Shown here piece by piece: positions 40,778-64,000 of a stretch of DNA of 64,000 nt (within the stretch, counting starts at the first letter, position 1; the number at the start of each line of letters is the position of its first letter). A program made the position numbers and the translations under genes. The DNA comes from Corynebacterium matruchotii (GTDB lineage Bacteria > Actinomycetota > Actinomycetes > Mycobacteriales > Mycobacteriaceae), in NCBI RefSeq assembly GCF_011612265.2, contig NZ_CP050134.2, positions 124,001 through 188,000 of the forward strand, written 5' to 3'. The notes below the pieces were generated by a model. The model worked only from the letters and a program-made list of their open reading frames with translations. It was not told where the DNA came from and did no database searches.

Positions 40778-40786
40778 AAACCAATG

Positions 40787-41475: not shown

Positions 41476-41506
41476 GCTTATCGACGTCCGCACGGCGTCG
41501 ATAAGC
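41476..41506. repeat. Inverted pair of the GCTTRTCGACG motif (possible terminator)
   Basis: GCTTATCGACG at 41476-41486 and its complement CGTCGATAAGC at 41496-41506 form a perfect 11-bp hairpin around nine bases, behind the excalibur gene ending at 41515. It is the only place in the window where two copies face each other. Confidence 0.85.
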
Positions 41507-41514
41507 GTTAGATA

Positions 41515-42420
41515 TTAGCGAGGACGGCGTTCGCAACCCACGCCGTCACCATCCCGGTCGAGGTGGCGACCATAGCCGGGCTCATTGCTTCGGATCGGGC
41601 GACCAAGCTCATTCCACACGGCACGGCAGTTCTTGTAGCGCTTGCCGGAGGCAGCAGGTGCGGGTGCCTGGTGGCGAACCGGCTGAGCCTGGGCTTGGGC
41701 CTGTCGGGCTGGCTGATTTTGGGCAGGTGCAGGTGCGGGGGCCGGCTGTGGTGCCGGGGCTGGTGCAGGTGCCGGAGCTGGCTTTGGTGCGAACGGGTTA
41801 GGCAGGCCCGGGATGTTGATGAGGTTTTGCTGGAGGGCCCAGAAGATGCCGCCGCCAATGAGCCCTAGCACACCAACGATGCCAGCGATGACGCCAGCAA
41901 CCCGCAGGGCAGGATTCGAACTAGCTTGCTGACTCTTATTGGCTTCATCAGCGGTTTGCGTGATTCCTGCCGGCTTCTTCTCATCCTTCTTGGAAGACAA
42001 CGAAGAGCTGTTATCCGAAATTTCGGACTTATCCTCGGTCTTGGTTGCCTTATCCTTGTCTGCGGATTTCTCATCCTTGCTGCTGAGCTTGGAGGAGGAC
42101 AGCTGATCCTTGATTTGGGAGCCCGGATCCACTTCCGGTTTCTCTGCGACTAGGCCCTCGTCGGAGGTAGTCTCGGCTTCGGCCTCAGAGGCTGCCGGCG
42201 CTTCGGGCTTTGTTTCCTGAGAGCTGCTGCTGGATTTGGCTTCGTCGCTGCCGGTCACGGTGGCGTCGGAGGTGGTGTTTTGGGTGGTTTGTTCCGTTTG
42301 GGTTACTTCGGCTTCCACGACCGGGGAAAGATCGGTGGTGGTGGTGTCTTGGGCATTAGCAATGGTGGAGGAGAAGCCCAAGCTCATGGCAATCGTGAAG
42401 GTGATAAGTGTTTTACGCAC
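41515..42420 (-). CDS. Secreted excalibur-domain protein, long paralogue
   Basis: A 301-residue exported protein: signal peptide MRKTLITFTIAMSLG..., a ~130-residue Ser/Lys/Glu/Asp-rich linker, a hydrophobic helix (GVIAGIVGVLGLIGGGIFWAL), the NIPGLPNPF segment shared with its paralogues, a Pro/Ala/Gln-rich spacer, and a C-terminal excalibur domain with YKNCRAVWNELGRPI and DRDGDGVGCE. The domain is nearly the same as that of 38852-39445. The start is GTG 42420. It probably spans the cell wall to present the calcium-binding module. Confidence 0.87.
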   Translation of the reverse strand: MRKTLITFTIAMSLGFSSTIANAQDTTTTDLSPVVEAEVTQTEQTTQNTTSDATVTGSDEAKSSSSSQETKPEAPAASEAEAETTSDEGLVAEKPEVDPGSQIKDQLSSSKLSSKDEKSADKDKATKTEDKSEISDNSSSLSSKKDEKKPAGITQTADEANKSQQASSNPALRVAGVIAGIVGVLGLIGGGIFWALQQNLINIPGLPNPFAPKPAPAPAPAPAPQPAPAPAPAQNQPARQAQAQAQPVRHQAPAPAASGKRYKNCRAVWNELGRPIRSNEPGYGRHLDRDGDGVGCERRPR

Positions 42421-44598: not shown

Positions 44599-46602
44599 CT
44601 AGAGAGCATCCATAGATTGCTGGAATAGGTATGAGGAATCGAATAGGTAGCTTAATTTCCCCCGGAGTTTTCCCTCTAATTCTGTTGGATCAATGGTTTC
44701 ACCAACGAGAGCTGTTGGATCGCTGATACTGATACCATATTCCCATGAAGAATAATCGCTTCGATTAACTAAGAAAAGCGAGAAGATGAATGGATCATCA
44801 GGCTGGCGACGCCAAGCGTTACTTTCCCATTGTCCATCGAACCACGAATAATCTAAATCACTTCTATTGCTTAGCCACACAGAAATTGGTATTTCATTGT
44901 TCTCATCGATCCCTTTGATTAATAGTATGGTGCTACTATTCCAATTCTCTGGGCGTAATCCCTCTTGGTCATTTTGTGGTAATATCGCCCGGTTGACATT
45001 CGGGCCTGCCAAAATTTTTAAATCATCCGCATACGTTTTAACTTCAGCAGCATCATTAATGGCTATGAAAGTAGAATCAATATATTGAGAACTGGCTAGA
45101 TTGATATGTTTCATTAGCTCTTGTGGTACTTTGTTGAGTTCTTCTTCAGCAGTTAAATCACAATTATTTTCATCAATACGTAATACTGCTTGAGTGGATT
45201 TTAAACCAAGTGGTTGCCCTTCGCTTATAAGTTGATAATCGCGGACCCTGCTGTATTTATCATTATCTTGTTCGGACCATTCTAGTAGTTTCCATGAGTT
45301 ATGCCCAGGGGCATAACGTGCGAAACGCTCGGAGCTGAAAAATGGATGTTCCATGACTGGTTGGAGAGTAATAGTGCGATCTTGAAAATAATGCGTATTT
45401 CCAAAAATTGAGTCTTTGGGATTGAAATCCTGGTAAACTTCGAGGTTTGCGCTCACACACTCATTATAGGTAAAGCTATAATTAGCATGCGTAGTGCGGG
45501 AATCAGGGGATGAACCGGTTTGTTGAATTTGGGTATCTTGTGGTTGCCATTTGCTGGATCTGAGATTATCAATGCACATTAGTCTGGATCCAGAGCTTAC
45601 ATCGTCGTAGTAATGGCCACATTTAAGATCAGTAGTTTCTTGGTAGAACTGCCATGAAGTTGTTAAGTACCCCAAGATAACATTTGTTCCGAGCATGATT
45701 CCTACCATATAAAATGATACGATCGGCATATAGAAACGTGATGGGAGAAGAATCATTATGGCCAATACGATGGTTAGAATGATACTTACAATTGTAAAGT
45801 TATGCCCCAAGGATTCATTGGTAAAATTGTATAATATTGCCAGAAAAATAAGATATATGCCTAGAGGAATCCATAACTCTTTAGAATTAAGTGCGGATCT
45901 CTTTTTTTGTTTATCTGGATCCGACACATCTAAGTAACATAGCCGAAGCAGTATAGCTCCCAATACAAACCCGATGATCATAGTGGTGATCTGGGTTATA
46001 GAGAAAGTTGTTATGCTGGCAGGCATATTACTGTATTCATTATAGTATGCTGGTAAAAATAATATGCTAGTAAGGATCGCACTTGTGGCAGCTATGCTTA
46101 TAGCAGTGTATCTTGATTTTTCATTAGTTTTATCTTGTGCACTTAATACCGCATATTTGATCTGACTGCCAAGTGTAGCAATAATTCTTTCCTTGGCGGT
46201 TTTCCGTAATAAGGTTTTATTGCCAGCAGTAGCTAGGGCCAAGTCTACATTGAATGATGATCGTAAATCTCCTATGAGTTGTGAAAACTTACTTGTATCG
46301 ACCAGAATAATCCACTGAAGTTCATTTGATTCGGCAATGCCACAAAACTGGAAATATAACTCTGATACATAGTCCATATCATTGTTATCAGGTTCTCCTA
46401 GAAAATCTGGCCATCTTATCTCTTGTCGTGCTAGGTCTGAAAATGGAATGCCGGGAGAGATAATGCCTCCACCCTCGCCAATTGCTGCAATAAAGATAAT
46501 ATCATTTGGTTCTGCTGAAGGGATCAGCCGTCCAAGTTTAAGGGTTTTAGCTAGCTGAAGAAATTGATTGTCTATGAGAAGTAAATAATAGTTATATTTC
46601 AT
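44599..46602 (-). CDS. Large membrane protein of the VWA/PP2C/kinase operon
   Basis: A 667-residue protein that I do not recognise. Residues 1-165 form a cytosolic domain (LIPSAEPNDIIFIAAIGEGG near the start). About five or six transmembrane helices span residues ~170-325 (for example IVSIILTIVLAIMILLPS). The last ~340 residues are a probable extracytoplasmic domain with a few Cys and many aromatic residues. It is the last gene of the operon and its start overlaps the kinase stop by four bases. Sequence is AT-rich with codon use unlike the flanking core genes, a sign of transfer. By position it is the likely sensor or effector controlled by phosphorylation. Confidence 0.8.
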   Translation of the reverse strand: MKYNYYLLLIDNQFLQLAKTLKLGRLIPSAEPNDIIFIAAIGEGGGIISPGIPFSDLARQEIRWPDFLGEPDNNDMDYVSELYFQFCGIAESNELQWIILVDTSKFSQLIGDLRSSFNVDLALATAGNKTLLRKTAKERIIATLGSQIKYAVLSAQDKTNEKSRYTAISIAATSAILTSILFLPAYYNEYSNMPASITTFSITQITTMIIGFVLGAILLRLCYLDVSDPDKQKKRSALNSKELWIPLGIYLIFLAILYNFTNESLGHNFTIVSIILTIVLAIMILLPSRFYMPIVSFYMVGIMLGTNVILGYLTTSWQFYQETTDLKCGHYYDDVSSGSRLMCIDNLRSSKWQPQDTQIQQTGSSPDSRTTHANYSFTYNECVSANLEVYQDFNPKDSIFGNTHYFQDRTITLQPVMEHPFFSSERFARYAPGHNSWKLLEWSEQDNDKYSRVRDYQLISEGQPLGLKSTQAVLRIDENNCDLTAEEELNKVPQELMKHINLASSQYIDSTFIAINDAAEVKTYADDLKILAGPNVNRAILPQNDQEGLRPENWNSSTILLIKGIDENNEIPISVWLSNRSDLDYSWFDGQWESNAWRRQPDDPFIFSLFLVNRSDYSSWEYGISISDPTALVGETIDPTELEGKLRGKLSYLFDSSYLFQQSMDAL

Positions 46603-47585
46603 GCTTTATGAAATCCCCTACATAATTCCTGCATAGTAGGTCTGTTGCTAGGATTCTCGTCAGAAGCGTTCTCGATAAGTCGGACAACATCTTTATCGAA
46701 TGCTCTACGCAGAGGATTTAAATCAGTTGACCATAGGAAAGCTTCGCTAGGATTAACACCTTCATGGTAAAGCCTTATAGCTATAAGAGCTGCTTTATAT
46801 ACATCCGAAGCTTGTGTTTGTACTGATGCCCGTGCTTTCAGCTCTCGAATCCTATTCTCGTTACTATGGTTTTGCGCTAATCTTGCGATTTGGTCATCTA
46901 GAGCCTGTTTTTCTGGTGGGATATATGAACCTGTGTGTTTCTGCGGCATTGCGGAACCGCCGTATTGCCAACGATAGCTGTCGGTGTCGATAAAAGCGGG
47001 AGCGCAATGTTTTGCTTGACGATGAGGATCAGGAACGTATGCCAGAATATTATTTGCGCTAATGTCACCTATTACCCATCCTAGACGGTGGATGCGCATA
47101 AAATATGTGAATAGACGTTGTAGATACCGTTTTTTCCCTAATGAGGTCATCGGCTTGAATCCTTGTTCCGGACCAAGCTTCCGTATTCTTTTTTCGGTTT
47201 GGATCCATCTGTCAAGTGGAAATAATTGATTATTAGAGTCTGGTGCAGTTGGGTCAACCATTTGTACAATAACTTTACGCATGAGCAATCCAGTGGCCCC
47301 ATCTTGGTCAACAACTGTGGCAAGGGGCCAAGCGGCTCGTTGGTCAATGTACGCTTTCTCGTCTCTGGACAGACGCTCATAAGCATTGACCATATAGTCT
47401 AATGCAATTTGAACAGCAATTGCTTTTCCATCCTGTTTAACAAAATCGAGATACTCCTTATATACAAATGGTCCTTGTAATCCTCTGATGGAATAATCTT
47501 TAGGAAGATCATAGACAGTGCCTTCACCTCCTGCACCGAGTGCATGCTCAATATTTAGCTCATTTCTGTTTATTTTTAGGCCCAT
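46599..47585 (-). CDS. Eukaryotic-like Ser/Thr kinase of the TerY-P type
   Basis: A 328-residue protein kinase. The glycine-rich loop is LGAGGEGTVYDLP, a Lys follows in FVYKEYL, the catalytic loop is IGDISANNIL, and FIDTDSYRW stands where DFG is expected. The GDI-x-x-NN-L and D-x-D-S-Y/F pattern is typical of kinases found with TerY-type VWA proteins rather than of Pkn kinases. No membrane segment is present, so it acts in the cytosol. It overlaps the PP2C gene by ten bases and the membrane-protein gene by four. The substrates are unknown; the VWA and membrane partners are candidates. Confidence 0.85.
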   Translation of the reverse strand: MGLKINRNELNIEHALGAGGEGTVYDLPKDYSIRGLQGPFVYKEYLDFVKQDGKAIAVQIALDYMVNAYERLSRDEKAYIDQRAAWPLATVVDQDGATGLLMRKVIVQMVDPTAPDSNNQLFPLDRWIQTEKRIRKLGPEQGFKPMTSLGKKRYLQRLFTYFMRIHRLGWVIGDISANNILAYVPDPHRQAKHCAPAFIDTDSYRWQYGGSAMPQKHTGSYIPPEKQALDDQIARLAQNHSNENRIRELKARASVQTQASDVYKAALIAIRLYHEGVNPSEAFLWSTDLNPLRRAFDKDVVRLIENASDENPSNRPTMQELCRGFHKA

Positions 47586-48994
47586 ACTATAATCATGCTC
47601 CGATCATCATGTGATTGAAAAGCAAGATATGATGTTATTTTTATTAACTCATATGCGGGTACAGGTTTAGCTAATTTGTCACACAAGTATACATCTATGC
47701 CTAGATCGGGTTTGCTAATGTCGTCACCGATGCCATCAGATGTAATGAATATGGCCTCATTCTTTGATATGGTTACCTGATTAATCAATGGATACTTTGG
47801 CCCCGGATCTTTAGGGAGAGCACAAACTTTTTCATTGAGCACAAAATCACCAGAAGGGGTTTCTTTGCCACTGCCTAAAAGGGTCATGGAATCGTTGCTG
47901 ATGATAAAGGAATAACCATCTCCTGCCAAGGAAGCTCGAATACAGGACACTTGATCATTAATCTTTTTAGAATCAATGATTAAGACCTCAGCAGTTGTTC
48001 CAATCACCTTTGCAAGGTGACTATCAAGTTCTTGATCTTGTGCATCCTCAGCAATTTTGAAAGTCCTTTTTCCTCGGGCTCGTAATTCATTACGGACATG
48101 GTTTGTGATATCTTCCCAAGGCAGGTCTTCAGGATGAAAACCTTCATCGAGTTTTTTGCGTACGGATTTTACTATCTTTTGTGTCGCGTAATAGGACCCC
48201 TTATGTGAGAATTCAGCTTCCGAAACACCATCTGCGATAGAGCCAATAAGATAGCGACCATTAGCTGATACCCCAAATGCTACTGAGTCTTGTCGTACCT
48301 TCTTATTTTCTTCATGTGATAGCCCTCGGACGGCGACAATACCTATTGTTAGATTCTCGTGGACGATTACATCTGCAACGCATCCAGGAAAATAAGAATC
48401 ATCCTTGTTGGACAACACGATCAATGGATCACGATTCGGAGCATTTTTTACATCTCCAAATGATGCAATACCTCGTTTTAATCCCTCAGCGATGATAACG
48501 TATCGATTTTTCTTTACAGTTTTCCTTGTTGGATGGTGAGAATTATCCTGGTTTTGGTTGAGTCTTGGACTATGGGTAATTGAACTGAGGCGGTCCTCTG
48601 GTCGATGTAAGGGTGATGGTGATGGAACCTCGTTTGTTTCAGAATTATATTGGAGGTTTTTACGGGACCTTGATGATGTATCAGTTGGGGACTGCGTAAA
48701 TTCTTGCTCATCTGTGTAGCCGTAGGGTCCCTCACTGTCAGTTCTAATACTTTGGCATTCCTCTTTATTTACGGAGTCATCATTATTGGATTGCCATTCA
48801 TCATGTCTATCATCAGTATCCATTGCTTGGTTGCTCTCCTTTTGGGAAAAGTTCTTCTTAATAATAATCCCCAATAAGCTCAGTAGTACTCCAATTATGA
48901 GTAGTATTATCACAATTATGGGAATTGCTATTGTTCCTATGTCAGGATAAGACGTGGAGGATGATGGCCGGGAGAAATTAAACAAATTCATCAT
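47576..48994 (-). CDS. Membrane-anchored PP2C-type protein phosphatase
   Basis: A 472-residue protein with one N-terminal transmembrane helix (IAIPIIVIILLIIGVLLSLLG), a ~110-residue polar linker, then a PP2C-like phosphatase domain. The domain shows VAFGVSANGRYLIGSIADGV with the metal-binding Asp, AIFITSDGIGDD near the end and a final SHDDRSMIIV with the last metal Asp. ATG 48994 is preferred because GGGAAG precedes it; a second ATG pair at 49012 lies inside the VWA gene. It would reverse the kinase reaction and is tethered to the membrane, where the fourth protein resides. Confidence 0.83.
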   Translation of the reverse strand: MMNLFNFSRPSSSTSYPDIGTIAIPIIVIILLIIGVLLSLLGIIIKKNFSQKESNQAMDTDDRHDEWQSNNDDSVNKEECQSIRTDSEGPYGYTDEQEFTQSPTDTSSRSRKNLQYNSETNEVPSPSPLHRPEDRLSSITHSPRLNQNQDNSHHPTRKTVKKNRYVIIAEGLKRGIASFGDVKNAPNRDPLIVLSNKDDSYFPGCVADVIVHENLTIGIVAVRGLSHEENKKVRQDSVAFGVSANGRYLIGSIADGVSEAEFSHKGSYYATQKIVKSVRKKLDEGFHPEDLPWEDITNHVRNELRARGKRTFKIAEDAQDQELDSHLAKVIGTTAEVLIIDSKKINDQVSCIRASLAGDGYSFIISNDSMTLLGSGKETPSGDFVLNEKVCALPKDPGPKYPLINQVTISKNEAIFITSDGIGDDISKPDLGIDVYLCDKLAKPVPAYELIKITSYLAFQSHDDRSMIIVWA

Positions 48995-49688
48995 CAACTT
49001 CCCATTCATCACTGTTGAACGTCTTTGGATCGACTATGATTTTTCCAGTCGGGTTATCACCTGCAGATGAACTCACAATGGAGCTAACAAGTGTGTTAAG
49101 GATCTCTTGGAGACGTTGTACAGCCCTTGTAGGATCCTTGGTGGCTGCGGCAAAGCCCGACCCCAATTTAAAAGCCCTAATACCTTCAAGGTTTGCATTT
49201 CCCACCCCAAAGGTGAAAAAGTTTGGTCGATAACGGAACCCTTCATCAGATAGTGCTGCCCAGGCGCGTGCACGTTCCTCCACATCTCCGATGTCTTCAC
49301 CGTCCGTGATGAAAAATACCGTGGGGCGATGGATGCCTATTTCAGGCTTGCGTAGACTTTCAACCGCAACGCCCATTTCATTAAATACTGCCCAGAAAGC
49401 AGCAGCGAAGTTTGTGCCACCTTTCGCTACAAGTTGTGGGATGTTTTCAGAAAAAGCATCAATTTCACTTAGTGGGATGACGACTCTGGCTTCGTCGCAG
49501 AATTCGATAAGTCCTAACCGAAGTCGTTGATCGAGCACCGAGTATTTTTCACAGGCTTCAACGATGCCAGGTACAAGTTGGTTGGCCGCATCTAGGAGTG
49601 TACCGCCTCCTGGCTTCTCTTCTAGCATTGAATAGGACACATCAATAAGGAAGAAAACTGGCAAATAGGTTGCTTTATATTTCTTCAT
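48978..49688 (-). CDS. VWA-domain protein, TerY-like
   Basis: A 236-residue cytosolic protein, essentially one von Willebrand factor A domain. The metal-ion-dependent adhesion site is FLIDVSYSM (DxSxS), with the Thr in KGGTNFAAAF and the Asp in FFITDGEDIGD. This is the TerY arrangement. It is the first gene of the four-gene operon; GGAATGAATT stands before ATG 49688. In TerY-P triads the VWA protein is thought to be phosphorylated and to assemble complexes. That role is family knowledge and inference, not visible here. Confidence 0.88.
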   Translation of the reverse strand: MKKYKATYLPVFFLIDVSYSMLEEKPGGGTLLDAANQLVPGIVEACEKYSVLDQRLRLGLIEFCDEARVVIPLSEIDAFSENIPQLVAKGGTNFAAAFWAVFNEMGVAVESLRKPEIGIHRPTVFFITDGEDIGDVEERARAWAALSDEGFRYRPNFFTFGVGNANLEGIRAFKLGSGFAAATKDPTRAVQRLQEILNTLVSSIVSSSAGDNPTGKIIVDPKTFNSDEWEVDDEFV

Positions 49689-54149: not shown

Positions 54150-54336
54150 CCGGTTTTGCTGGTTTCTAGGTGGGGGATTGGGAGTGGGGGCTCGGCGATG
54201 GGATGCGGTCGGTAGGGGACAGAGGCTGGTTGGCGTGGGTGTGGGCGGTGTGGTGGCGTGTGCGTGGTTGCACGGGCGTGGCACGCGTACGGTGGTGTGG
54301 TAGCTGCGGCGTGTGTGGCGGTCCCGGTAGTAGGTG

Positions 54337-55390
54337 TGCTGAGCTGGAGTTCTGGTTGTGGGGCTACGCCTAGCTTGGCGCCGAATCGGGAAAGTATAGC
54401 TTAGAACTTGCGCTGCTATTTTGTGGACAGCTTCGGTTGGTGGGTAGCATATTAGATGAGTTTGGGTTTTGGTCCTGGGTCGTCTTGTAAGGGGTTCCCG
54501 GATTGGAAACCAAGCTCAGAACAAATGCGGCAGATGCAAACGCTTCTGCTTCATAGGTGCTGAGCTGGAGTTCGTATAAAAAGCTATTCCTGAGTCTGGT
54601 AGCAAATTATGAACTCCGGCTTAGTGCTTATATGGCATGGTTGCGGCGAGTTTTGCCTCAGTAAACGATGAGGCTGCAAATCTGGTGGGCTGGGGTTTGT
54701 CGGTGTGGCTAGCTTCCAGAGGCAGTATTTCCAGCAAACCCTAGCCCACCAAACTTGAAGCCCGGTGGGGTTGATGGGTATCGGATTTCCTAAGCTGGGG
54801 TTTCGGTTTGGGGCGCTGGCGGTTCATGGACATTTGGGTGTAGCACATTCAGAACTCAAGCTCAGCAAATTAGAAGCCCTCGGTCGCGGCGGTCCAAAGC
54901 TGGTGCTTCACGTTATCTAAGCTCCACAACCCCGCGAATAGTTGATGCGCAGGCTTCCTGGAGCGGGTTCTGGAGCTTAGAACAAGTGTGGCCAGTTCCC
55001 AATGTGTGCTTCATGTCTGCTGAGCCTGGGTTTGGAGCTTGCTGCTAGCCGGTGGCGGATGGTAGTGGGTGTGCTGAGCTGGAGTTCCGGTTTTGCAGCC
55101 ACTCCCAGCTTGGTACTGAATCGAGAAAGTATAGCTTAGAACAAGTGCAGCTGATGTGATGAGCTTCTGCTTCACGGTTGCTGAGCTGGAGTTCGTGCGA
55201 AATCCTGCCCTTGAGGCTAGTAAGAAACCGCGAACTCAAGCTTAGCGAACCAGAAGCCCTTGGCTGCGGCGGGGTAAAGCCGAGCTTCACACTATCTAAG
55301 CTCCACTCTCCAGGCTCTCCATCCAGAACCTCTGCACTCCTCCGCCCCCAAACCCCAGCTTAGGCATTCTGAAGTCTGTTACCAGTCTCG
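54337..55390. repeat. Inverted-repeat array R3 (about 9 units)
   Basis: A gene-free kilobase of the same unit type as R1. Examples: GAGCTGGAGTTC with GAACTCCGGCTTAG (from 54560), GGTGGGCTGGGGTTTG with CAAACCCTAGCCCACC (about 54685-54750), CTAAGCTCCA with TGGAGCTTAG (about 54918-54980), and GAGCTGGAGTTC with GAACTCAAGCTTAG (about 55182-55248). Two units (near 54337 and 55075) end in the variant GAATCG(A/G)GAAAGTATAGCTTAG. After many right arms the word GAAGCC follows. Confidence 0.85.
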
Positions 55391-55494
55391 ATATTTATAG
55401 GTTTATAGCATTTATGCCAGATTGTGCCCCCAAGGTAAAACCTGCTTTTTCCAGCCCTTTTCCAAAATTCAGACGTCTTACTTCTGTGACCTGC

Positions 55495-55523
55495 TTGACA
55501 TTTTGAAAATTATATAGTATATT
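55495..55523 (+). promoter_or_regulatory. Leaderless promoter of the Thg1-like gene
   Basis: TTGACA at 55495-55500 and TATATT at 55518-55523 with a 17-base spacer. Transcription would start at or next to ATG 55530, so the mRNA is probably leaderless; no ribosome binding site is present. Confidence 0.82.
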
Positions 55524-55529
55524 TTTCCT

Positions 55530-56282
55530 ATGAATTTGGATACCAGGATGAAGAAATATGAATATGTAACCCGCACGTACCTCACATGCCGAATGCCGGT
55601 TATTGTTCGCCTTGATGGCAAGGCTTTCCACACGTTTACCCGCGGCTTGAAAAAGCCCTTTGACCCGGTTTTTAACAGTGCCATGGATGACACCATGCTG
55701 TACCTTGCCCAAAACAGTCAGAACTGCATGCTGGCTTATCGGCAGTCTGACGAGATTTCCCTGCTTCTCGTTGACTACGCCACCTTCGAAACCGCGGCAT
55801 GGTTCGATAACAACATTTCCAAAATCGTGAGCATTACCGCCTCAATGGCAACAGCGGTGTTTAACGAGTCTTTCAAAAAGCACGCATTAGCCCAGCTAGA
55901 AACCGAGACGGATCAGAAATACTGCAATGCTTTACGACGCTGTATCGACAACCTTGCCCTCTTCGACAGTCGTGCCTTCAACATCCCCCGTGAAGAAGTA
56001 GCCAACTGTTTCTGGTGGCGCCAAAAGGACGCGATTAAAAACAGTATCGCTAGCCTGGGGCAAGCCCATTTCTCCCCGCGCGAGCTTCACGGAAAACACG
56101 GCCAGCAAATTCAGGAAATGCTAGAAACCAAGGGCATTAGCTGGGAGGATGCGCCCACGCCCCAGAAGCGGGGCGCCTGTGCTCTTCGGGATGACGAGGG
56201 CCAATGGCATGTCGACCATAACATTCCCGTATTCACCGAGGATTGGAACTACATTGACCGATTCGTTGATGTAGACCTGTAA
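55530..56282 (+). CDS. Thg1-like protein (3'-5' RNA polymerase family)
   Basis: A 250-residue member of the tRNA-His guanylyltransferase (Thg1/TLP) superfamily, which adds nucleotides in the 3'-5' direction. Motifs: VIVRLDGKAFHTFTRGL with the metal-binding Asp, YRQSDEISLLLVDY with the second Asp-Glu pair, and FDSRAFNIP followed by NCFWWRQKDAIKNSI, the family's conserved central block. Bacterial TLPs are thought to repair 5' ends of damaged tRNAs rather than modify tRNA-His. Flanks are repeat arrays and a broken gene, so it lies in an accessory zone and is probably horizontally acquired. The substrate RNA is unknown. Confidence 0.92.
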   Translation: MNLDTRMKKYEYVTRTYLTCRMPVIVRLDGKAFHTFTRGLKKPFDPVFNSAMDDTMLYLAQNSQNCMLAYRQSDEISLLLVDYATFETAAWFDNNISKIVSITASMATAVFNESFKKHALAQLETETDQKYCNALRRCIDNLALFDSRAFNIPREEVANCFWWRQKDAIKNSIASLGQAHFSPRELHGKHGQQIQEMLETKGISWEDAPTPQKRGACALRDDEGQWHVDHNIPVFTEDWNYIDRFVDVDL

Positions 56283-56310
56283 TCCCAAGCCTTCTCGCTA
56301 TTCCCTGAAT

Positions 56311-56345
56311 AGAGTCCCATCAAGACCGGGTCTTGATGGGACTCT
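56311..56345 (+). terminator. Terminator after the Thg1-like gene
   Basis: AGAGTCCCATCAAGACC pairs perfectly over 17 bp with GGTCTTGATGGGACTCT, with a minimal loop, followed by TGTCG. Very stable hairpin. Confidence 0.85.
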
Positions 56346-56404
56346 TGTCGTTATGCTCGTTGTGGGGAAGCGTAACAATATGTATGTTAGCAGCTAAATA
56401 AGCC

Positions 56405-56791
56405 TTATGGTTCGGGATGCGTAGTTCCGGTTAGCGGATCGAGACCGCCGAGTTTCATTTCAAACTGCTTGTAGTTGGCAAGTGACGCAAAATGTCGGGA
56501 ATACAGGTCACAGTCTTCGTGAATGTTGTCGTATAAAGTTGGTGCGACATCAACAATGTAGCGGATGGTTACCGCCAACTGGCCTTCCAAACAATCAGCC
56601 TTAACTCGTTCCTGGTCTTTCGCTATGCGTTCAACGCGCGCATATGCTTCTTCTTAGGTATCTGCATAGACGATATAAAAATCTTCGCGGAAGAAACTTG
56701 GTTGTGCTGCCATTGGGCTTGCTTCTAGCTCAAAGACCACGATGCCAATGTAGGGTCCATATGCGATAGCGTACCAAACCAGCAGCTCCAT
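56405..56791 (-). pseudogene. DUF4288-like gene broken by an in-frame stop
   Basis: From ATG 56791 the frame codes MELLVWYAIAYGPYIGIVVF and continues to ...FYIVYADT, then TAA at 56654-56656. The same frame continues without interruption as EEAYARVERIAKDQERVKAD and on to a stop at 56405. The whole (128 codons plus the stop) looks like a small single-domain protein with a WYA start and an EEAYxxxxxIAK helix, as in DUF4288. A single base change explains the interruption. It is probably a pseudogene; a sequencing error must be excluded. Confidence 0.7.
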
Positions 56792-56809
56792 GGGGTCGAA
56801 GGGTATCGA

Positions 56810-57135
56810 TTCTGCTGAGCTGGAGTTCCGGTTTGGGCCACTCTCGGCCCCTGGGCATATGGGTGCAGCAGGTTTGAAACTACAGCTCAGCACCTGTGAA
56901 GCATGGCTGTGGCAGGGAGTCGGTTGGCCATGCGCTGGGGCTGCAAGTTTGGTGGGCTTGGGTTTGCTGGTGCGGTTATGCCGTGGAGCTGGTTTTTCTA
57001 CAAGTCCCAGCCCACCAAACCTGCAGCCTCGTTAGGTATCAGGTTTCCTGAGCTGGAGTTCCGGTTTTGGGCGTTTCCGGTTCCTGGTCCCATGGGTGCA
57101 GCATTTTTGAAACTACAGCTCAGCACTTGCGAAGC
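56810..57135. repeat. Inverted-repeat patch R4 (3 units)
   Basis: Three units: GCTGAGCTGGAGTTCCGGTTT with GAAACTACAGCTCAGC (about 56812-56892), GGTGGGCTTGGGTTTG with CCCAGCCCACCAAAC (about 56960-57022), and CTGAGCTGGAGTTCCGGTTT with GAAACTACAGCTCAGC (about 57049-57125). The first and third are close copies, including their spacers (GGG...CCTGG...ATGGGTGCAGCA). Confidence 0.85.
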
Positions 57136-57260
57136 ATGATCGTAGTGGGGGAGCCAGCGCGAAAAATATGATCTATACCACTTGATGTCGGGGTTGTGGG
57201 TGTTTGTGCCGGTAGTAGCAATTTTGCATGCGATGGTGGGGGAGAGGGCACACTTGCGGC

Positions 57261-57312
57261 ATATCGAATAACGATATAACATATTGAATAACGATATATC
57301 GAAAAACGATAT
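57261..57312. promoter_or_regulatory. Triple ATATCG-N5-CGATAT operator before the S41 gene
   Basis: Three palindromes: ATATCGAATAACGATAT at 57261-57277, ATATTGAATAACGATAT at 57281-57297 and ATATCGAAAAACGATAT at 57296-57312. The same three, with identical spacing, stand at 59543-59594. Confidence 0.88.
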
Positions 57313-57559
57313 GCGGATGATTGTCGAAAGGAAGGAAATCATGAACATCATGAACGACACAGGTAAGGGTGCAACGGCATTGCGGGCTAGCCTGGGATTC
57401 CCCCTGTATGTGAGGCCTCGGTCGCTGCGGGGTCCGTTGCAAAGCTTGGTGCGCAACAGTAGGGGCAACTCGAAAAACAATTGCGCAAAACCAGGCGGGT
57501 TGGGTCGCCCCAACCGCCCGTCGTCAGACACTGCGACTCGTCGCGGAAGGACTACTGCC

Positions 57560-58534
57560 ATGAAAGTCGTCAAAACTCTCACCATCATCATTGCGGTGAT
57601 CGCCGTTCTGGCCGGCGCCATCACCTGGTTCTTTGGGCCAAGCTTGGGGGTCGCGCTGCTCGGCCGGCCGATCCTCATGATTTCCACGCCGCACCGCTAC
57701 GGACAGGCCGCCATCGACATCGGCCGCAACTTTGCGATCTACGCGGACACTCCACAAGCCACCGCAGCCTACGAGGAAGCCAAAGCAGAAATTGCGAACG
57801 TCCATTCGGTTGAGGAAACCTACCCGATCATCAAGAAATACCTCAAGGTGGCTGGCGGGAAGCATTCCAATTTCCTTTCGCCGGAAGACAACGCAAACAG
57901 CGATGACTTGGGTAATGACTCCCCAACCGTAACCAAGAACGACAACATTGTTACCGCCATGCTTCCAAGTCTGAATCTTGGGCCGGTCGGACAAAAATAT
58001 GCGGACATACTTGCGAACGGGTTGGCCGAAAATGTTCCGAATTCCTGTGGTGTCATCCTTGACCTCCGCAAAAACGATGGTGGCGACATGGGCCCCATGC
58101 TTGCCGGCGTCAGCGGACTCCTGCCCGATGGGACCCTCCTGAGCTTCAAGAGCAAAAACTCGACCAGCCCGGTCACCCTCAACAACGGCAGCATCTCCGG
58201 CGGCGGCACACCCACTACCGTGGGGCCGAAAGACAAGTTCCGGGTGCCGGTTGCCATCCTCACCAGCAACGTTACCGCCAGCTCCGGTGAAGCCACCCTC
58301 CTCAGCTTCCGTGGTCTGGAAAACACGCGCACATTTGGGCAGCCCAGCGCCGGCTATGCCAGCGGTAACCTGATTATTGACATGCCCGACGGTGCCGGCT
58401 TGATGGTCACTACTGCTAACGACGTGGCCCGCACCGGGGAAGAATTCTCCGAAGACCCGATCGCGCCGGACGTGTCAACCGACCGGCCGGAACAGGCAGC
58501 AACCGAGTGGTTGCATTCACAGTGTGGCCAATGA
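57560..58534 (+). CDS. S41-family peptidase, membrane-anchored
   Basis: A 324-residue protein with an N-terminal transmembrane helix (VVKTLTIIIAVIAVLAGAITWFF) and an extracytoplasmic S41 (C-terminal processing/tail-specific) protease domain. Seen: LGPVGQKYADILANGL, SCGVILDLRKNDGGDMGPML, the likely nucleophile Ser in NVTASSGEATLLSFRGLENT, and TFGQPSAGYASGN. ATG 57560 has GGAAGG upstream. The frame is open back to 57284 (92 extra codons, with an ATG at 57341 after GGAAGG), but this part is Arg/Gly-rich and precedes the membrane helix, so it is treated as leader. The triple operator upstream links its control to the DUF2975/HTH pair. Confidence 0.82.
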   Translation: MKVVKTLTIIIAVIAVLAGAITWFFGPSLGVALLGRPILMISTPHRYGQAAIDIGRNFAIYADTPQATAAYEEAKAEIANVHSVEETYPIIKKYLKVAGGKHSNFLSPEDNANSDDLGNDSPTVTKNDNIVTAMLPSLNLGPVGQKYADILANGLAENVPNSCGVILDLRKNDGGDMGPMLAGVSGLLPDGTLLSFKSKNSTSPVTLNNGSISGGGTPTTVGPKDKFRVPVAILTSNVTASSGEATLLSFRGLENTRTFGQPSAGYASGNLIIDMPDGAGLMVTTANDVARTGEEFSEDPIAPDVSTDRPEQAATEWLHSQCGQ

Positions 58535-58744
58535 CTGGCCTTGCCATTCGCCAATAAACCATCCGAGGCTTATTCACAACGGTGGAAAGTACACCCACAC
58601 TTCCCACCAATCGAATAAGTCTCGAACTCAATTCACCAACCATGAGGGTAAGAATATTCACGTAGAATGAACATAATCAAGATGAATATATGCCAGTTAG
58701 GCAGCTAAAATAATGCGTTTCCAAGCCCAAGGAGGTTCAATAAT

Positions 58745-58987
58745 ATGAAATTGGGCAACATTTTCCGAGGACCAAAATGGCCCAGAGACGCCGCTGAATT
58801 TATCGCAACACATTTTGCGGACAAGAGCGTGACAGAATTCTTTGACGAACCACGCTTCGAACGATTCCTCTATCTCGCCAAAACCGAAACATGGGTCGAA
58901 GCCGCCCGGGAATATCGTGATGTCACGGGCGAAGACATTCAATCAAGCATTATTGCTGCCGAGGTGGCCCGCCGGACGTTCCGGTAG
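58745..58987 (+). CDS. Small hypothetical protein
   Basis: An 80-residue protein behind an excellent ribosome binding site (AAGGAGG) and start. It is polar and mostly helical in appearance (FLYLAKTETWVEAAREYRDV), without membrane segments or Cys. I do not recognise it. It lies between the S41 gene and repeat array R5, in the same direction as the S41 gene but 210 bases behind it. That gap holds a short AT-rich stretch and nothing else convincing. Confidence 0.65.
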   Translation: MKLGNIFRGPKWPRDAAEFIATHFADKSVTEFFDEPRFERFLYLAKTETWVEAAREYRDVTGEDIQSSIIAAEVARRTFR

Positions 58988-59064
58988 GCGAGAGTGTGGG
59001 GGAGGGGGTTTCAAGCTGGGGAGGGGAGCGGGCAAAGCTTGCTGAAATCCGCTGTTGGTGTGGG

Positions 59065-59420
59065 TTGCGCATGTGGTGGGCTGGGGTTTGAGTAACTTGT
59101 GACCTTGTGCGTCCTGATTGCACCGACAAACCCCAGCCCACCAAACTTGAAGCCTTGCAGGTTTGGAGGTAGTGGTTTTGCTGAGCTGGAGTTCTGATTT
59201 TGGGCGCTTTGGGTTCCTGGGCGTATGGGGGCAGCAGGTTTGAAACTATAGCTCAGTACTTGTGAAGCGTGGCTGCGGTGGTGAGTTTGTCGGGGCTGCA
59301 AACTTGGTGGGCTAGGGTTCGTTGGCGTGTTCATGCCGTGAAGCTGGTTTTTCTGCAAGTCCCAGCCCACCAAACCTGCAGCCCCGTAAAGTATCAGGTT
59401 TCCTGAGCTGGAGTTCCGAT
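59065..59420. repeat. Inverted-repeat patch R5 (3-4 units)
   Basis: Units of the array family: GTGGGCTGGGGTTTG with CAAACCCCAGCCCAC (about 59074-59148), GCTGAGCTGGAGTTC with GAAACTATAGCTCAG (about 59179-59256), and GGTGGGCTAGGGTTCG with CCCAGCCCACC (about 59305-59377). A last left arm CTGAGCTGGAGTTC at 59403 has no partner. After the right arms TGAAGC follows as in R3. Confidence 0.85.
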
Positions 59421-59542
59421 CTGCAGTCGGTAAGACCAGCAGCAACGAAAAACCAAGCTGTGTTGCCCTGAAGTTGCCCAGGTGCAGCCCTGCAGCCGCC
59501 CCTGAAACCGCCCCGAACCACATGGGGGAGGACCCTTGCGGC

Positions 59543-59594
59543 ATATCGAAAAACGATATAACATATTGAATAACGATATATCGAGAAACGATAT
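59543..59594. promoter_or_regulatory. Triple ATATCG-N5-CGATAT operator before the DUF2975/HTH pair
   Basis: Palindromes at 59543-59559, 59563-59579 and 59578-59594, with offsets of 20 and 15 bases exactly as at 57261-57312. The conserved block begins further upstream at CTTGCGGC. Confidence 0.88.
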
Positions 59595-59643
59595 GCTTCT
59601 CGCGCAGATAAGCGGGAATTGCAGGAAGGACAAGGACTACGTC

Positions 59644-60192
59644 ATGGACGTTGACAAAAAAGATCGCAACGAAATCCTCGTCGCCATGATTATCTACACA
59701 CTGATGCTGGTGCTGCTGGGCCGTCGGCTACTCGATCTCGTGATCTGGCACCGGATTCCCCATTCCTTCGGGGTGCTGCTTGCGGAGCGGGCAGATGAGG
59801 GCATGATCCCGCTCTCCCTGGCTGACTCCGTCGCAAAGTCACTGCTCATTAGTGGTTTCCTGCTGTCGCTCCTGGGCATTGTTGTGGTGGCCACGACGCT
59901 GATTCTGCTGGCCCGGCAGCTGCTTAAGGGCCAGTTCTTCACCGCATATAATGTGAAATGCTTCACTATTGGGTCGCTGTCGCTTGGTGTCTATTTCCTG
60001 GGCGTTTTCGTGCAGAATATGGGGGCCAATGAGATGGCTGCAAAGCTGAATCTGCGCAGCTGGTTTGACTACTCCGAGGCACAAAGCTTGGATTATATTG
60101 CTATGTTTCTGTTCGTAGAAACATTGGTGCTGTTAGCGGTAGTGATTCGCCGCGGGATCTCTATGCAAGAAGACCAGGAAGGGTTGATCTGA
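59644..60192 (+). CDS. DUF2975-like membrane protein
   Basis: A 182-residue protein with four transmembrane helices (residues ~15-35, ~60-90, ~105-125, ~150-170), the plan of DUF2975 proteins, which regularly occur with a YozG-type HTH gene as here. ATG 59644 has GGAAGGACAAGG upstream and is preferred over an in-frame ATG at 59536 that would lie before and across the operators. The stop directly precedes the regulator's TTG start. A sensor role for the regulator is possible but unproven. Confidence 0.78.
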   Translation: MDVDKKDRNEILVAMIIYTLMLVLLGRRLLDLVIWHRIPHSFGVLLAERADEGMIPLSLADSVAKSLLISGFLLSLLGIVVVATTLILLARQLLKGQFFTAYNVKCFTIGSLSLGVYFLGVFVQNMGANEMAAKLNLRSWFDYSEAQSLDYIAMFLFVETLVLLAVVIRRGISMQEDQEGLI

Positions 60193-60405
60193 TTGGTAAA
60201 GCTACAAAGAGTGGTCTGCCACCTCGACCAACTCCTGGCCGAACGCGAAATGACGCTTGCCGCCCTCGCTGACCAGGTTGGGGTCACCGTCGCTAACCTG
60301 TCCGTGCTCAAGAATAACCGCGCCAAAGCCGTACGATTTACCACGCTTGTGGCGCTTTGCGACGCCCTCGACTGCCAACCTGGCGACCTCTTTACCGCCG
60401 AATAA
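60193..60405 (+). CDS. YozG-like XRE/Cro regulator
   Basis: A 70-residue DNA-binding protein, a single Cro/C1-type HTH: REMTLAALADQVGVTVANLS, then VLKNNRAKAVRFTTLVALCD and the ending DCQPGDLFTAE. It starts with TTG at 60193, just after the stop of the membrane protein, with AGGAAGG upstream, so the two are coupled. It is the most likely protein to bind the ATATCG-N5-CGATAT sites at 57261 and 59543, which is inference from proximity. Confidence 0.88.
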   Translation: MVKLQRVVCHLDQLLAEREMTLAALADQVGVTVANLSVLKNNRAKAVRFTTLVALCDALDCQPGDLFTAE

Positions 60406-61262: not shown

Positions 61263-61436
61263 ATGAACGCCTCCACGGCCGTGCTTGACAGCACAATCCT
61301 CGATGAGCTCGACAAAGAGCTCGAAGCCCAAATCATCAAAGAGCTGGAACCGGAAATGTTCGGCCTCAGCCGCCTGCTTGGAAACAACGGGCGCTGGTGC
61401 ACCATCACCAAAGAGTGCATGCCCTCCTGCAACTAA
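61263..61436 (+). CDS. lanA1: Lantibiotic precursor, alpha (A1) peptide
   Basis: A 57-residue class II lanthipeptide precursor. The acidic leader (TILDELDKELEAQIIKELEP) is followed by a core ending LGNNGRWCTITKECMPSCN. This closely matches the C-terminal half of haloduracin alpha and lacticin 3147 A1, whose CTxTxEC ring is the lipid-II-binding motif. Three Cys and two Thr can form two to three (methyl)lanthionine rings. The N-terminal Cys pair of haloduracin alpha is missing; the corresponding part reads MFGLSRLL. ATG 61263 has GAAGGA upstream. The leader cleavage site is not obvious. Confidence 0.93.
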   Translation: MNASTAVLDSTILDELDKELEAQIIKELEPEMFGLSRLLGNNGRWCTITKECMPSCN

Positions 61437-61464
61437 CACAACACCCAAGAAAGAGGTTTTCACT

Positions 61465-61632
61465 ATGAACCAGCAACCCTCCAACCACGATCGTGTCCAG
61501 AACTACTCGCAGGATGAGCTGCGAGCCATGATCGAAAACGAAGAAGCCGTCGACGGCGGCACTCACCCCAGCACCCTCATCCCCATTTCCATCGCTTTGT
61601 GCCCCACTACCCGGTGCAGCCGGCGGTGCTAA
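61465..61632 (+). CDS. lanA2: Lantibiotic precursor, beta (A2) peptide
   Basis: A 55-residue precursor. The leader SQDELRAMIENEEAVDGG ends in a double-glycine processing site after residue ~32. The core is THPSTLIPISIALCPTTRC plus SRRC. The CPTTxCxxxC ending is the hallmark of the beta components of haloduracin, lacticin 3147 and plantaricin W. Ser/Thr residues in the N-terminal part are candidates for dehydration. It lies 28 bases behind the alpha gene, with an AAGAGG ribosome binding site. Together the two would act synergistically on Gram-positive bacteria. Confidence 0.93.
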   Translation: MNQQPSNHDRVQNYSQDELRAMIENEEAVDGGTHPSTLIPISIALCPTTRCSRRC

Positions 61633-61693
61633 AGAGTAGGCTTGGTGTTCCACGGAAACTGCTGCAATCCTGAGAATCTGAAGGAGAAAAACC

Positions 61694-61861
61694 ATGAAGA
61701 AATATACCAAACAAGAATGGGCATACACGACCATTGGCTTGGCGCTTGGCGTCGCGGTTGCTTTGTCCCTCGGCCAAGGCAACTACATGATGGGAGCGCT
61801 CTCCGCATTCTTTGGAATCTGCGGCTACTTATTGGCTAGGAAATCTGCCCGCAAGCAGTAG
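61694..61861 (+). CDS. Small membrane protein in the lantibiotic operon
   Basis: A 55-residue protein, too short for ordinary ORF cut-offs: MKKYTKQEW, two adjacent hydrophobic helices (YTTIGLALGVAVALSLG and MMGALSAFFGICGYLLA), and a basic tail ARKSARKQ. GAAGGAG lies just before ATG 61694. By size, topology and position between the precursors and lanM it may be a LanI-type immunity protein, which is inference. I know no close family member. Confidence 0.8.
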   Translation: MKKYTKQEWAYTTIGLALGVAVALSLGQGNYMMGALSAFFGICGYLLARKSARKQ

Positions 61862-61894
61862 TTTCCTGCTTCGAGGGCGCAAGCCACCACCATT

Positions 61895-61937
61895 AAGGGC
61901 CCAGTTACTTCCGCTCTAGGTAACTGGGCCCTTTTTC
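61895..61937 (+). terminator. Attenuator-like terminator between precursors and lanM
   Basis: AAGGGCCCAGTTAC pairs perfectly with GTAACTGGGCCCTT (14 bp), followed by TTTCT. It stands between the small membrane protein gene and lanM, where partial termination would keep LanM far below its substrates. Confidence 0.9.
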
Positions 61938-61977
61938 TATCCTCAAATACATAACAACAGACTTAAAGGGATTAAGC

Positions 61978-64000
61978 ATGCATTCCGAATTTCCCAATTA
62001 CTATCATGTGTTGAGTAAATCGTTTAAGAAAACGTTGCTCAACCGCCTTACCTCCGCCGATCTCCCCGTGACCGGTACACTCATTGATGACGCCAATAAC
62101 TGGTTCCTGTCACGAAGCGCAGAATTCGCCCAGCGTGCGCTTATCGATGCCTTTCACGCATGGCGGGAAACCACAGGTTATCCTGATAATGCCGAATCCA
62201 GCGCTGCCTATGATGAATTCAATAGGCTCCTCCTCGACCCCACCCAACGCACCGCCTTGGTGAATGACCGGTTCCCCAAGCTTGGCCAGCTGCAAGAAAG
62301 AGTGTTCTCCTATAGCGTCGACGCAGTTGTTGAGGCCGTCAAACGTTTCTATGAGGACCGTCCCCATCTGGCCATGCTGAACGTCAAGGCGGACGACACC
62401 ATCGTTTCCCTGGGCTTTCATGGCGAAGAAACCCACAACCATGGCCGCACCGCCATCGTCGTCACTACCGACTCGGCTGTGGTCGTGTACAAGCCCCGCA
62501 GCGGCATGGGGGAAATCGCCATCGATATGGCATGTCGCCACCTGGGTGCGGCCCCATTCTCTCTGGTAGCGCCGACCATTGACATTGGGGACTACTGTTG
62601 GCAGCTCTTCATTAGCCCGCCGGCCACCGGCGTGGTCGATGTCCCCGCCTATATGCGGGCCGCCGGCACGCTGCTGGCCGCCTGCCATATTCTGGGCACT
62701 ACCGACCTGCACGTCGACAATATTTGCTGCTCCTCGGCCGGGCTTCCTACCATCATTGATGGTGAAACCGCTCTCCAATTTCGGCTTCCAGCCGGCCTGA
62801 ACCTTGACGCGACCGACGTGTTGGCCTCCGGCATGCTACCCACCGTGCTCTCCCGTAGCGAGTTCTGGCGGCACTTCTCTGGATTAAACTTCTTCCCTCA
62901 TGAAAAGACCGCGACATGCGTGAAACATGCTGTCACCGATTCCGGCACCGACGCCGTGGCCTTCCTGCGGGTCAGTTACCAGCACCCCCGGCCGCCGATC
63001 GTTGCGGATCTGCAAAATATCGATCCGGCTCAGGCCATGGGGATCCTCATCGAAAGCTTCGAAAAGGCTCGGGTGCAGGCAGCATTATCGCCTACCCTGG
63101 CTGCCTATGTTCGGGATATGGAACGCGTCTTGCGTTGGCGCCAGGTACTGCGAGCCACCGGCACCTATCAGTCCTTCCTGGAGGCATCACTCATGCCGGC
63201 AGCCCTCGCTGGCCTGGATGATCCGCTCACGCTACTGGACAAGGGGCCGCGCGGTATGGTCGACGGTCCCACCATCGGCGTGCAGGAACGACTACAGCTT
63301 GCCGATGGCGATGTGCCGTTCTTCCAGATGGATGCCACCGGAAAAGTCTATGACGGTGCTGGACATCACGTGGGCCAGGCCTCCTTCACCGACCGGTTCT
63401 CCCTGCCCAGCAGTAGGTTGGCCGACTTCACCAGCATTGCTGGACCGGCCTACGCGCAGGTTCTCGACGCCAACGCCCACGCTCTGACCCTCCACCAGCC
63501 ACTCGATACGGTTGCGCGAGTCACCGAGCCAGACATGCGACAAGAGATTTTGAAAAAATCAACTGCGCTACCCGACTCTGGGGGTGATCGGTGGCTCTGC
63601 TTCGGTATCGGTGACGAAGATCTCACCATTGAGGCTCAGTCCATTTCCTTCCTCATGAGCGACGGCACCTCCTGGGCGCTCAGTGACGCAGACGAGTTAC
63701 AAAACCGGTGGGAGGAATTCGTGCGGGAAGCCCCCGAAGTCCCAGCAAACTTCGTGGGATTCGGCCCCGGAACCTCGCTGCTTGTCACCCAGAAAGCGGC
63801 TGGCGACGCTACGATCGTCGACAAGCTGCCCGGTGTGATGGACTCGATGGGCACCACCACTGATTTCCTCGGCGGCATTGACGCGGCGCTTGCCGCATTG
63901 GCGCACGTCACCGCCGATGTGAACCCGCAGCCGATCGTGAAGAGCGCCATGACGTTCATTGGGCACCAGCTGCAAGCCGCCCAACCCGAAACCAATGCCG
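61978..64000 (+). CDS. lanM: Class II lanthipeptide synthetase LanM (3' end outside window)
   Basis: Bifunctional enzyme that dehydrates Ser/Thr of the precursors and closes thioether rings. The visible 674 codons cover the N-terminal dehydratase (DUF4135) part: GFHGEETHNHGRTA near residue 147, VVVYKPRSGMGE near 170, TTDLHVDNICC near 243 and TIIDGETAL near 258, the kinase-like motifs of LanM. The zinc-binding cyclase domain would lie beyond the window. The frame has no stop to 64000. No start-proximal ribosome binding site better than AAAGGGATTAAGC is seen. Two-component systems normally use two LanM enzymes; only one is visible here. Confidence 0.93.
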   Translation, partial: MHSEFPNYYHVLSKSFKKTLLNRLTSADLPVTGTLIDDANNWFLSRSAEFAQRALIDAFHAWRETTGYPDNAESSAAYDEFNRLLLDPTQRTALVNDRFPKLGQLQERVFSYSVDAVVEAVKRFYEDRPHLAMLNVKADDTIVSLGFHGEETHNHGRTAIVVTTDSAVVVYKPRSGMGEIAIDMACRHLGAAPFSLVAPTIDIGDYCWQLFISPPATGVVDVPAYMRAAGTLLAACHILGTTDLHVDNICCSSAGLPTIIDGETALQFRLPAGLNLDATDVLASGMLPTVLSRSEFWRHFSGLNFFPHEKTATCVKHAVTDSGTDAVAFLRVSYQHPRPPIVADLQNIDPAQAMGILIESFEKARVQAALSPTLAAYVRDMERVLRWRQVLRATGTYQSFLEASLMPAALAGLDDPLTLLDKGPRGMVDGPTIGVQERLQLADGDVPFFQMDATGKVYDGAGHHVGQASFTDRFSLPSSRLADFTSIAGPAYAQVLDANAHALTLHQPLDTVARVTEPDMRQEILKKSTALPDSGGDRWLCFGIGDEDLTIEAQSISFLMSDGTSWALSDADELQNRWEEFVREAPEVPANFVGFGPGTSLLVTQKAAGDATIVDKLPGVMDSMGTTTDFLGGIDAALAALAHVTADVNPQPIVKSAMTFIGHQLQAAQPETNA

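What the first reader, a model, noticed from the sequence alone, without database searches (positions are those of the whole stretch)
61263..64000. New two-component class II lantibiotic locus in a Corynebacterium-type genome
Alpha and beta precursors with the diagnostic CTITKEC...C and CPTTRCSRRC endings lie directly before a LanM gene. Such two-component lantibiotics are best known from Firmicutes. The core of the alpha peptide keeps the lipid-II motif almost exactly as in haloduracin.
Basis: partly seen in the sequence, partly recalled or inferred. Interest (0 to 1): 0.8.

Follow-up and report, generated by a model that had tools for sequence, protein, structure and literature searches.

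The report
Corynebacterium two-peptide lantibiotic, unusual alpha
This is a complete gene set for a two-peptide, lipid II-targeting antibiotic of a known general type, carried by a Corynebacterium; its lipid II-binding peptide belongs to a Corynebacterium form that has lost the usual front ring and the usual leader-cutting signal.

Summary
Alpha (61263-61436) and beta (61465-61632) precursors score over curated cut-offs. Past the window end follow the rest of an intact LanM (866 aa), a C39-peptidase LanT, LanF, LanE and a second LanM (945 aa). The kind is not new: such pairs are in print for Actinobacteria (PMC7268733), and NCBI already names Corynebacterium relatives 'lichenicidin alpha family'. 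Three features I found nowhere described. (1) Alphas of this type lack the double-glycine-type site and any cysteine before ring B (own alpha, and 17 of 120 surveyed), while the betas keep the site. (2) The LanM beside the precursors groups with the beta enzyme of lacticin 3147 and the distal one with the alpha enzyme, so the order is swapped. (3) The distal LanM has Arg for a conserved kinase Lys in 5 of 5. How alpha loses its leader is open. New variant of a known kind.

The parts
61263..61436 (+). lanA-alpha, precursor of the alpha (lipid II-binding type) peptide, 57 aa
   Evidence: PF14867 48.3 bits, NF000539 32 bits; GAAGGA ribosome-binding-like site upstream
61465..61632 (+). lanA-beta, precursor of the beta (pore-forming type) peptide, 55 aa, leader ending DGG
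   Evidence: NF038161 36.5 bits, cut-off 26
61694..61861 (+). small hydrophobic protein, 55 aa, probable dedicated immunity protein (inferred)
   Evidence: no family over cut-off; relatives in the same place in L015, L016 and L018; in L017 a 55-aa protein upstream of alpha aligns at 28% identity but was no search hit
61895..61933 (+). intrinsic terminator-like hairpin between the small protein and the first LanM (read-through control, inferred)
   Evidence: 16-pair stem (terminator-like sites in the whole region are no more frequent than in shuffles, 10 against 11.5); fold -31.9 kcal/mol, z -5.6
61978..64000 (+). LanM next to the precursors, 866 aa, beta-type by phylogeny; it ends outside the window at window-equivalent 64578. 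Further parts outside the window (L005 coordinate + 59000): LanT 64606-66726 (706 aa), LanF 66733-67653 (306 aa), LanE 67650-68570 (306 aa), distal LanM, alpha-type by phylogeny, 68585-71422 (945 aa), all on the + strand
   Evidence: PF13575 and PF05147 over cut-off in both LanMs, PF03412, PF00664 and PF00005 over cut-off in LanT, weak ABC2_membrane matches under cut-off in LanE; LanF best NCBIfam match TIGR03740 lantibiotic protection ABC, 190.9 bits, under its cut-off of 309.75; protease Cys, His and Asp of LanT aligned with LtnT; trees; coordinates

Best explanation
A complete class II two-component lantibiotic locus: alpha, beta, small immunity protein, LanM (beta-type), LanT, LanF, LanE, LanM (alpha-type). 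Shown from sequence: the genes are intact and have this order, and alpha keeps the Ser, Thr and Cys that form rings B, C and D of lichenicidin alpha (Ser 10 residues before the Cys, then CTxTxEC...C) but has no Cys that could form ring A. Inferred: the promoter-proximal LanM modifies beta and the distal LanM modifies alpha; both products leave through LanT; alpha binds lipid II through rings C and D, beta joins the complex and makes pores; LanFE and the small membrane protein protect the producer. LanT cuts beta after Gly-Gly. Alpha has no such site in this clade; it is cut either after the conserved acidic (or Gln) residue before Met, Leu or Ile by another extracellular protease, or by LanT at a non-canonical site, giving a peptide of about 22 to 26 residues with three rings. 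The confidence is for the locus and the division of labour, not for one of the two ways of cutting alpha.
For: Family matches of both precursors. Intact downstream genes. Same order alpha-beta-small protein-LanM-LanT-LanF-LanE-LanM in L015, L016 and L018; L017 differs in the place of the small protein and has two betas. Ring B-D residues: PDB alignment to lichenicidin A1 with the ring assignments in PMC9863751. Alpha survey: 103 of 120 precursors with the ring motif have G[GAS] or AG within 14 residues before the ring-B Ser, and 96 of those 103 have a Cys there; 17 have neither. [EDQ] followed by [MLI] in 18 of 18 short forms read from the strings (P0007 and P0010, broken variants, left out). 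Betas keep GG or GA in 9 of 9 aligned, 6 of them from Corynebacterium. LanM pairing: support 99/99, no-swap tree rejected at p-AU 0.009, same split in dehydratase-only and cyclase-only trees.
Against: No product has been seen. LanM1 and LanM2 score under NCBI's curated LanM cut-off (171.9 and 240.5 against 304), and the L018 alpha under the NF000539 cut-off (26.8 against 29). Arg replaces the conserved kinase Lys in the distal LanM, and Glu the conserved P-loop Asp in the first LanM (5 of 5 each), so full activity is not assured. PDB best hits do not separate the two enzyme types: a Streptomyces alpha-type control also prefers LicM2. The beta match to lichenicidin beta in the PDB is not significant (E 2.6). 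No other protease gene lies among the locus genes; the two S8 matches of the genome are far away. Acidic residues are common in these leaders and 8 of the 18 short forms are near copies of the window's own. The clade tested by AU was named after a first tree had been seen; several branches are long, and the dehydratase tree carries a long-branch warning.
Confidence: 0.82

Rival explanations
1. Rival for the alpha step only: LanT itself cuts both leaders; the Corynebacterium LanT has drifted to accept a Gly-Leu or similar site in alpha, so there is no second protease.
For: MFGL before the ring-B Ser resembles VFGA of lacticin alpha; the LanT peptidase domains of the five Corynebacterium loci are only 27-31% identical to LtnT and carry a short insertion; no other protease gene among the locus genes.
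Against: P0011, P0096 and P0112 have Trp where the Gly would be, and four of 18 short forms (P0001, P0008, P0011, P0096) have no Gly in the 10 residues before ring B; C39 proteases are described as cutting after GG, GA or GS (PMC10885120, passages); betas keep GG or GA in the same loci.
Confidence: 0.4
2. The alpha gene is a decaying remnant and the locus now acts through beta or not at all.
For: Loss of the cleavage motif and ring A; database variants with an inserted stretch (P0007) or a different C-terminus (P0009).
Against: Ring B-D residues and the gene set persist across divergent genomes (43% LanM1 identity between own and the L015/L021 locus); both LanMs are open and keep the zinc ligands.
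Confidence: 0.07
3. A roseocin-like actinobacterial system with one promiscuous LanM.
For: Actinobacterial host.
Against: Two LanM genes and the CTxTxEC motif, which roseocin alpha lacks (PMC10027976, passages).
Confidence: 0.02

Closest known systems
Lichenicidin (LchA1/LchA2)
   Same: alpha residues 35-57 align with lichenicidin A1 residues 10-32; ring B, C, D spacing; beta in the LchA2/BrtA2 family
   Different: alpha lacks the N-terminal domain with ring A and the GG cleavage motif; no LicP-like protease gene among the locus genes
Lacticin 3147 (pMRC01, L024)
   Same: adjacent alpha and beta, LanM-LanT-LanM block, ABC immunity genes nearby
   Different: alpha lacks the FGA|CSTN segment; the two LanMs are in swapped order by phylogeny; LanF and LanE lie on the same strand inside the block; no dehydrogenase gene after the distal LanM
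Actinobacterial loci of the birimositide kind (Streptomyces plasmid L025; unnamed same-class genome, L020)
   Same: two-LanM, two-component loci; L025 beta named LchA2/BrtA2 family
   Different: their alpha keeps YGA|CTTNTFSLS; LanM order as in lacticin; an LLM-class oxidoreductase gene follows in L025 (L020 not checked for it)
Roseocin family
   Same: actinobacterial two-component lantibiotics
   Different: single LanM, no CTxTxEC motif (PMC10027976, passages)

Membership tests
Two-component class II lantibiotics | adjacent alpha precursor with CTxTxEC and beta precursor with CPTTxC..C | tested here: met
Two-component class II lantibiotics | LanM enzyme(s) with DUF4135 dehydratase and LanC-like cyclase domains | tested here: met
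   both domains over Pfam cut-off in both LanMs
Two-component class II lantibiotics | C39-peptidase ABC exporter LanT | tested here: met
   protease residues aligned
Two-component class II lantibiotics | double-glycine-type leader end on beta (usual feature) | tested here: met
   DGG before the core; GG or GA in 9 of 9 aligned betas
Two-component class II lantibiotics | double-glycine-type leader end on alpha (usual in the family, not what defines it) | tested here: not met
   absent in own alpha and in 17 of 120 surveyed; this is the reason for the call 'variant'
Two-component class II lantibiotics | thioether rings, lipid II binding, synergy of the two peptides | not testable with these tools
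   needs mass spectrometry and activity assays
TIGR03897 type 2 LanM (NCBI rule) | curated score of 304 bits | tested here: not met
   171.9 and 240.5 bits: divergent enzymes, not filed under this model
PF14867 Lantibiotic_a | gathering score 27 | tested here: met
   48.3 bits
NF038161 LchA2/BrtA2 beta | curated score 26 | tested here: met
   36.5 bits
Roseocin family | one LanM for two precursors | tested here: not met
   two DUF4135 and two LANC_like matches in the genome, all in this locus

The most novel reading that the evidence does not exclude
Corynebacterium evolved a stripped-down alpha peptide, a three-ring lipid II anchor without the N-terminal domain, whose leader is removed not by LanT at Gly-Gly but in one step by a separate acid- or Gln-directed protease. 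The two halves of the antibiotic would then be matured by different routes, with the two LanMs in swapped order and the alpha enzyme running on an Arg-for-Lys kinase site. If the protease is not the producer's own, alpha would be switched on by the neighbourhood.
Probability: 0.3. Interest if true: 0.6.

Novelty: new variant of a known kind. Interest (0 to 1): 0.45.

Why it matters
It extends lichenicidin-like antibiotics to a family of Corynebacterium loci and offers a natural test of which parts of the alpha peptide are needed. Lichenicidin alpha has two putative lipid II sites; NMR supports the C-terminal one (PMC9863751, abstract and first part of the discussion). A clade that keeps only the C-terminal module would suggest that this module suffices with a beta partner. 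The missing leader-cutting signal makes a clear biochemical question, and the swapped LanMs warn against assigning substrates by gene order.

Tried and rejected
PDB best hit as a test of alpha-type against beta-type LanM: own LanM1 prefers LicM2 and own LanM2 prefers CylM, LtnM2 and LtnM1 behave the same way, but both Streptomyces LanMs, the alpha-type too, prefer LicM2, so I dropped it and relied on the trees. Phage carriage: no match for alpha. Plasmid carriage: no record covers 80% of LanM1; alpha at E up to 10 finds 16 records: Staphylococcus 13, Streptomyces, Lactococcus and Sagittula one each, the last at chance level. I did not fetch the Staphylococcus plasmids. The S41 peptidase gene at 57284-58534 as the alpha protease, and the HTH and membrane genes at 59536-60405 as regulators: no relatives among the ORFs of the six other loci, so not claimed. 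A defence system at 44599-49688: only weak PADLOC matches. Place of the alpha leader end: MFGL may be the old leader end (VFGA) or old core (TFSL); the sequence does not decide. Rows dropped: P0010 (no ring motif) from the count; P0007 and P0010 from that. P0006 and P0010 end in what looks like sequencing-adapter translation (recalled), so their tails were not used as evidence.

Full report
WHAT IS THERE. The window is bases 124001-188000 of a single 2.87 Mb contig. The alpha and beta precursor genes stand at 61263-61436 and 61465-61632 exactly as reported. A third small gene (61694-61861, 55 aa, hydrophobic) and a strong terminator-like hairpin (61895-61933; -31.9 kcal/mol, z -5.6) precede the first LanM. 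Beyond the window the locus goes on: LanM1 ends intact (866 aa), then LanT with a C39 peptidase domain (706 aa), LanF, LanE and LanM2 (945 aa), followed by dnaJ and a MerR-type gene. The genome has two matches to DUF4135 and two to LANC_like, all here.

WHO CARRIES IT. PF14867 matches 6 of 242 genomes of the genus, own included (5 over cut-off), and 2 of 396 genomes drawn from the phylum, own included. The genus is Corynebacterium: G197 is in the same genus, and a contig of the same length is titled Corynebacterium sp.. The order alpha, beta, small protein, LanM, LanT, LanF, LanE, LanM is the same in L015, L016 and L018. In L017 a 55-aa protein of similar make-up lies upstream of alpha, there are two betas, and the contig ends inside the distal LanM. 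L019 has LanM, LanT, an ABC ATPase and a distal LanM with a more distant alpha.

SETTING. In the window's genome the matched parts of grpE and dnaJ are 33.5 kb apart. In 10 of the 12 other genus genomes compared they are 0.67-0.73 kb apart, in the other two 2.1 and 5.9 kb. The locus sits at the dnaJ end of this stretch, which is most simply an insertion between the two chaperone genes.

ALPHA IS SHORT. Alpha keeps the ring B, C and D residues of lichenicidin alpha (ring assignments from PMC9863751, introduction and first part of the discussion read) but has no Cys upstream of ring B and no GG, GA or GS before it. To see whether that is peculiar, I took the 121 alpha candidates held after (one search lists 120 of 178 hits, and the search was seeded partly with short forms, so proportions are not population frequencies). 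One lacked the ring motif. Of the 120 left, 103 have G[GAS] or AG within 14 residues before the ring-B Ser, the nearest at 8 residues in 89; 96 of the 103 also have a Cys there. Seventeen have neither. Two of the 103 (P0007, P0009) are variants of the window's own type, counted there only through an inserted stretch or an AG. The two short forms that carry a name come from Corynebacterium (P0011 Corynebacterium sp., P0056 C. phocae). In 18 short forms (the 17 plus P0009) an E (12), D (3) or Q (3) stands directly before a Met (16), Leu (1) or Ile (1) that lies 3-4 residues before the ring-B Ser (strings); 8 of these 18 are near copies of the window's own. Betas keep GG or GA in 9 of 9 aligned precursors, 6 of them from Corynebacterium; the betas of L019 and the second beta of L020 were not aligned.

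HOW ALPHA MIGHT BE CUT. C39 proteases are described as cutting after GG, GA or GS. In cytolysin and lichenicidin a serine protease then removes a hexapeptide ending in Glu, and in vitro that protease alone can remove the whole leader (PMC10885120, passages). The EPE, EAD, PTE, SVE and similar ends before Met in the Corynebacterium alphas resemble that second site. This is analogy: no such protease gene lies among the locus genes, and the two S8-family matches of the genome are at 1.75 and 2.19 Mb. A LanT with changed taste is as likely. One Halobacillus alpha (P0129) has a GG one or two residues before the ring-B Ser, so a core without an N-terminal domain has a precedent with a normal site.

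WHICH LanM FOR WHICH PEPTIDE. A tree of 18 LanMs puts the promoter-proximal LanMs of five Corynebacterium loci with LtnM2 and the distal LanMs of L020 and L025, and the distal Corynebacterium LanMs with LtnM1 and the proximal LanMs of L020 and L025. With three long or partial rows left out (15 rows) the split has 99/99 support and the opposite grouping is rejected at p-AU 0.009; the group was named after the first tree was seen. Dehydratase-only and cyclase-only trees (17 rows each) give the same split; the former warns that long branches meet. That LtnM1 acts on alpha and LtnM2 on beta is recalled, not taken from a call. Residues: at the CylM Lys274 position (placed by the alignment) the distal LanMs have Arg (5 of 5, one of them partial; 13 of 13 others Lys); at the Asp252 position the proximal LanMs have Glu (5 of 5; 13 of 13 others Asp). 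L016 and L018 are near copies, so these are four lineages rather than five. PMC4550811 (passages) reports a small amount of dehydrated product with K274A and partly dehydrated product with D252A of CylM, so the conservative changes here need not be fatal. Zinc ligands of the cyclase are kept in the complete enzymes.

WHAT IS KNOWN. Two-component lantibiotics with lichenicidin- or lacticin-type alphas in Actinobacteria are in print (PMC7268733, passages). A class II lanthipeptide locus in C. matruchotii and six lanthipeptide clusters in respiratory Corynebacterium are mentioned or counted; I saw no dissection of them in the passages read (PMC12715929; PMC12188740). I found no description of the short alpha or the swapped LanMs in the listings, some of which show only the top of longer lists (40 of 102, 15 of 142, 20 of 134, 20 of 26). 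The library holds open-licence papers only and supplements were not available, so Walker et al. may list such precursors in their tables.

VERDICT. The finding is real and complete, the general kind is known, and the interest lies in the alpha variant and its unsolved maturation.

Noticed in passing
window 57261-57312 and 59543-59594: Two near-identical blocks, each with three copies of the palindrome ATATCG-N5-CGATAT (6 sites with at most 1 mismatch, 0.08 expected), at the starts of an S41 peptidase gene (ORF 57284-58534) and of a DUF2975-like membrane gene plus HTH_26 gene (59536-60405). They look like operators of that HTH regulator.
   Followed up: partly
window 44599-49688: Low-GC block (0.41-0.44 against 0.53-0.58 around it) with a VWA-domain protein, a PP2C phosphatase, a protein that looks kinase-like by eye (no Pfam match) and a 667-aa protein without Pfam match; reminiscent of TerY-type phosphorylation triads (recalled).
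   Followed up: partly
window 38043 to the window end (continues to window-equivalent 71796): 33.5 kb between the matched parts of grpE and dnaJ, which are 0.67-0.73 kb apart in 10 of 12 congeners.
   Followed up: partly
window 38852-42420: Three secreted-looking proteins with a similar start; the two that were scanned end in an Excalibur domain.
   Followed up: no
window 54326-59418: Dispersed 46-127 nt direct repeats, mostly between the larger ORFs.
   Followed up: no
L017 3565-3732 and 4177-4332: One Corynebacterium locus has two different beta precursors flanking alpha, both over the NF038161 cut-off.
   Followed up: no
L019 and L013: A more distant locus in a sixth Corynebacterium genome, whose alpha has a Cys four residues before the ring-B Ser and a GA directly before it; its two LanMs fall in the same swapped order.
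   Followed up: no
L015 1430-3538, L016 1217-3639, L018 14389-16811: Response-regulator-like and possible sensor-kinase genes flank these three loci; none was noticed beside the window's own (read from sequence starts only).
   Followed up: no
P0009 (database protein, 253658-base contig): A relative of the window's own alpha whose reading differs after MPS, so that the last ring is missing.
   Followed up: no
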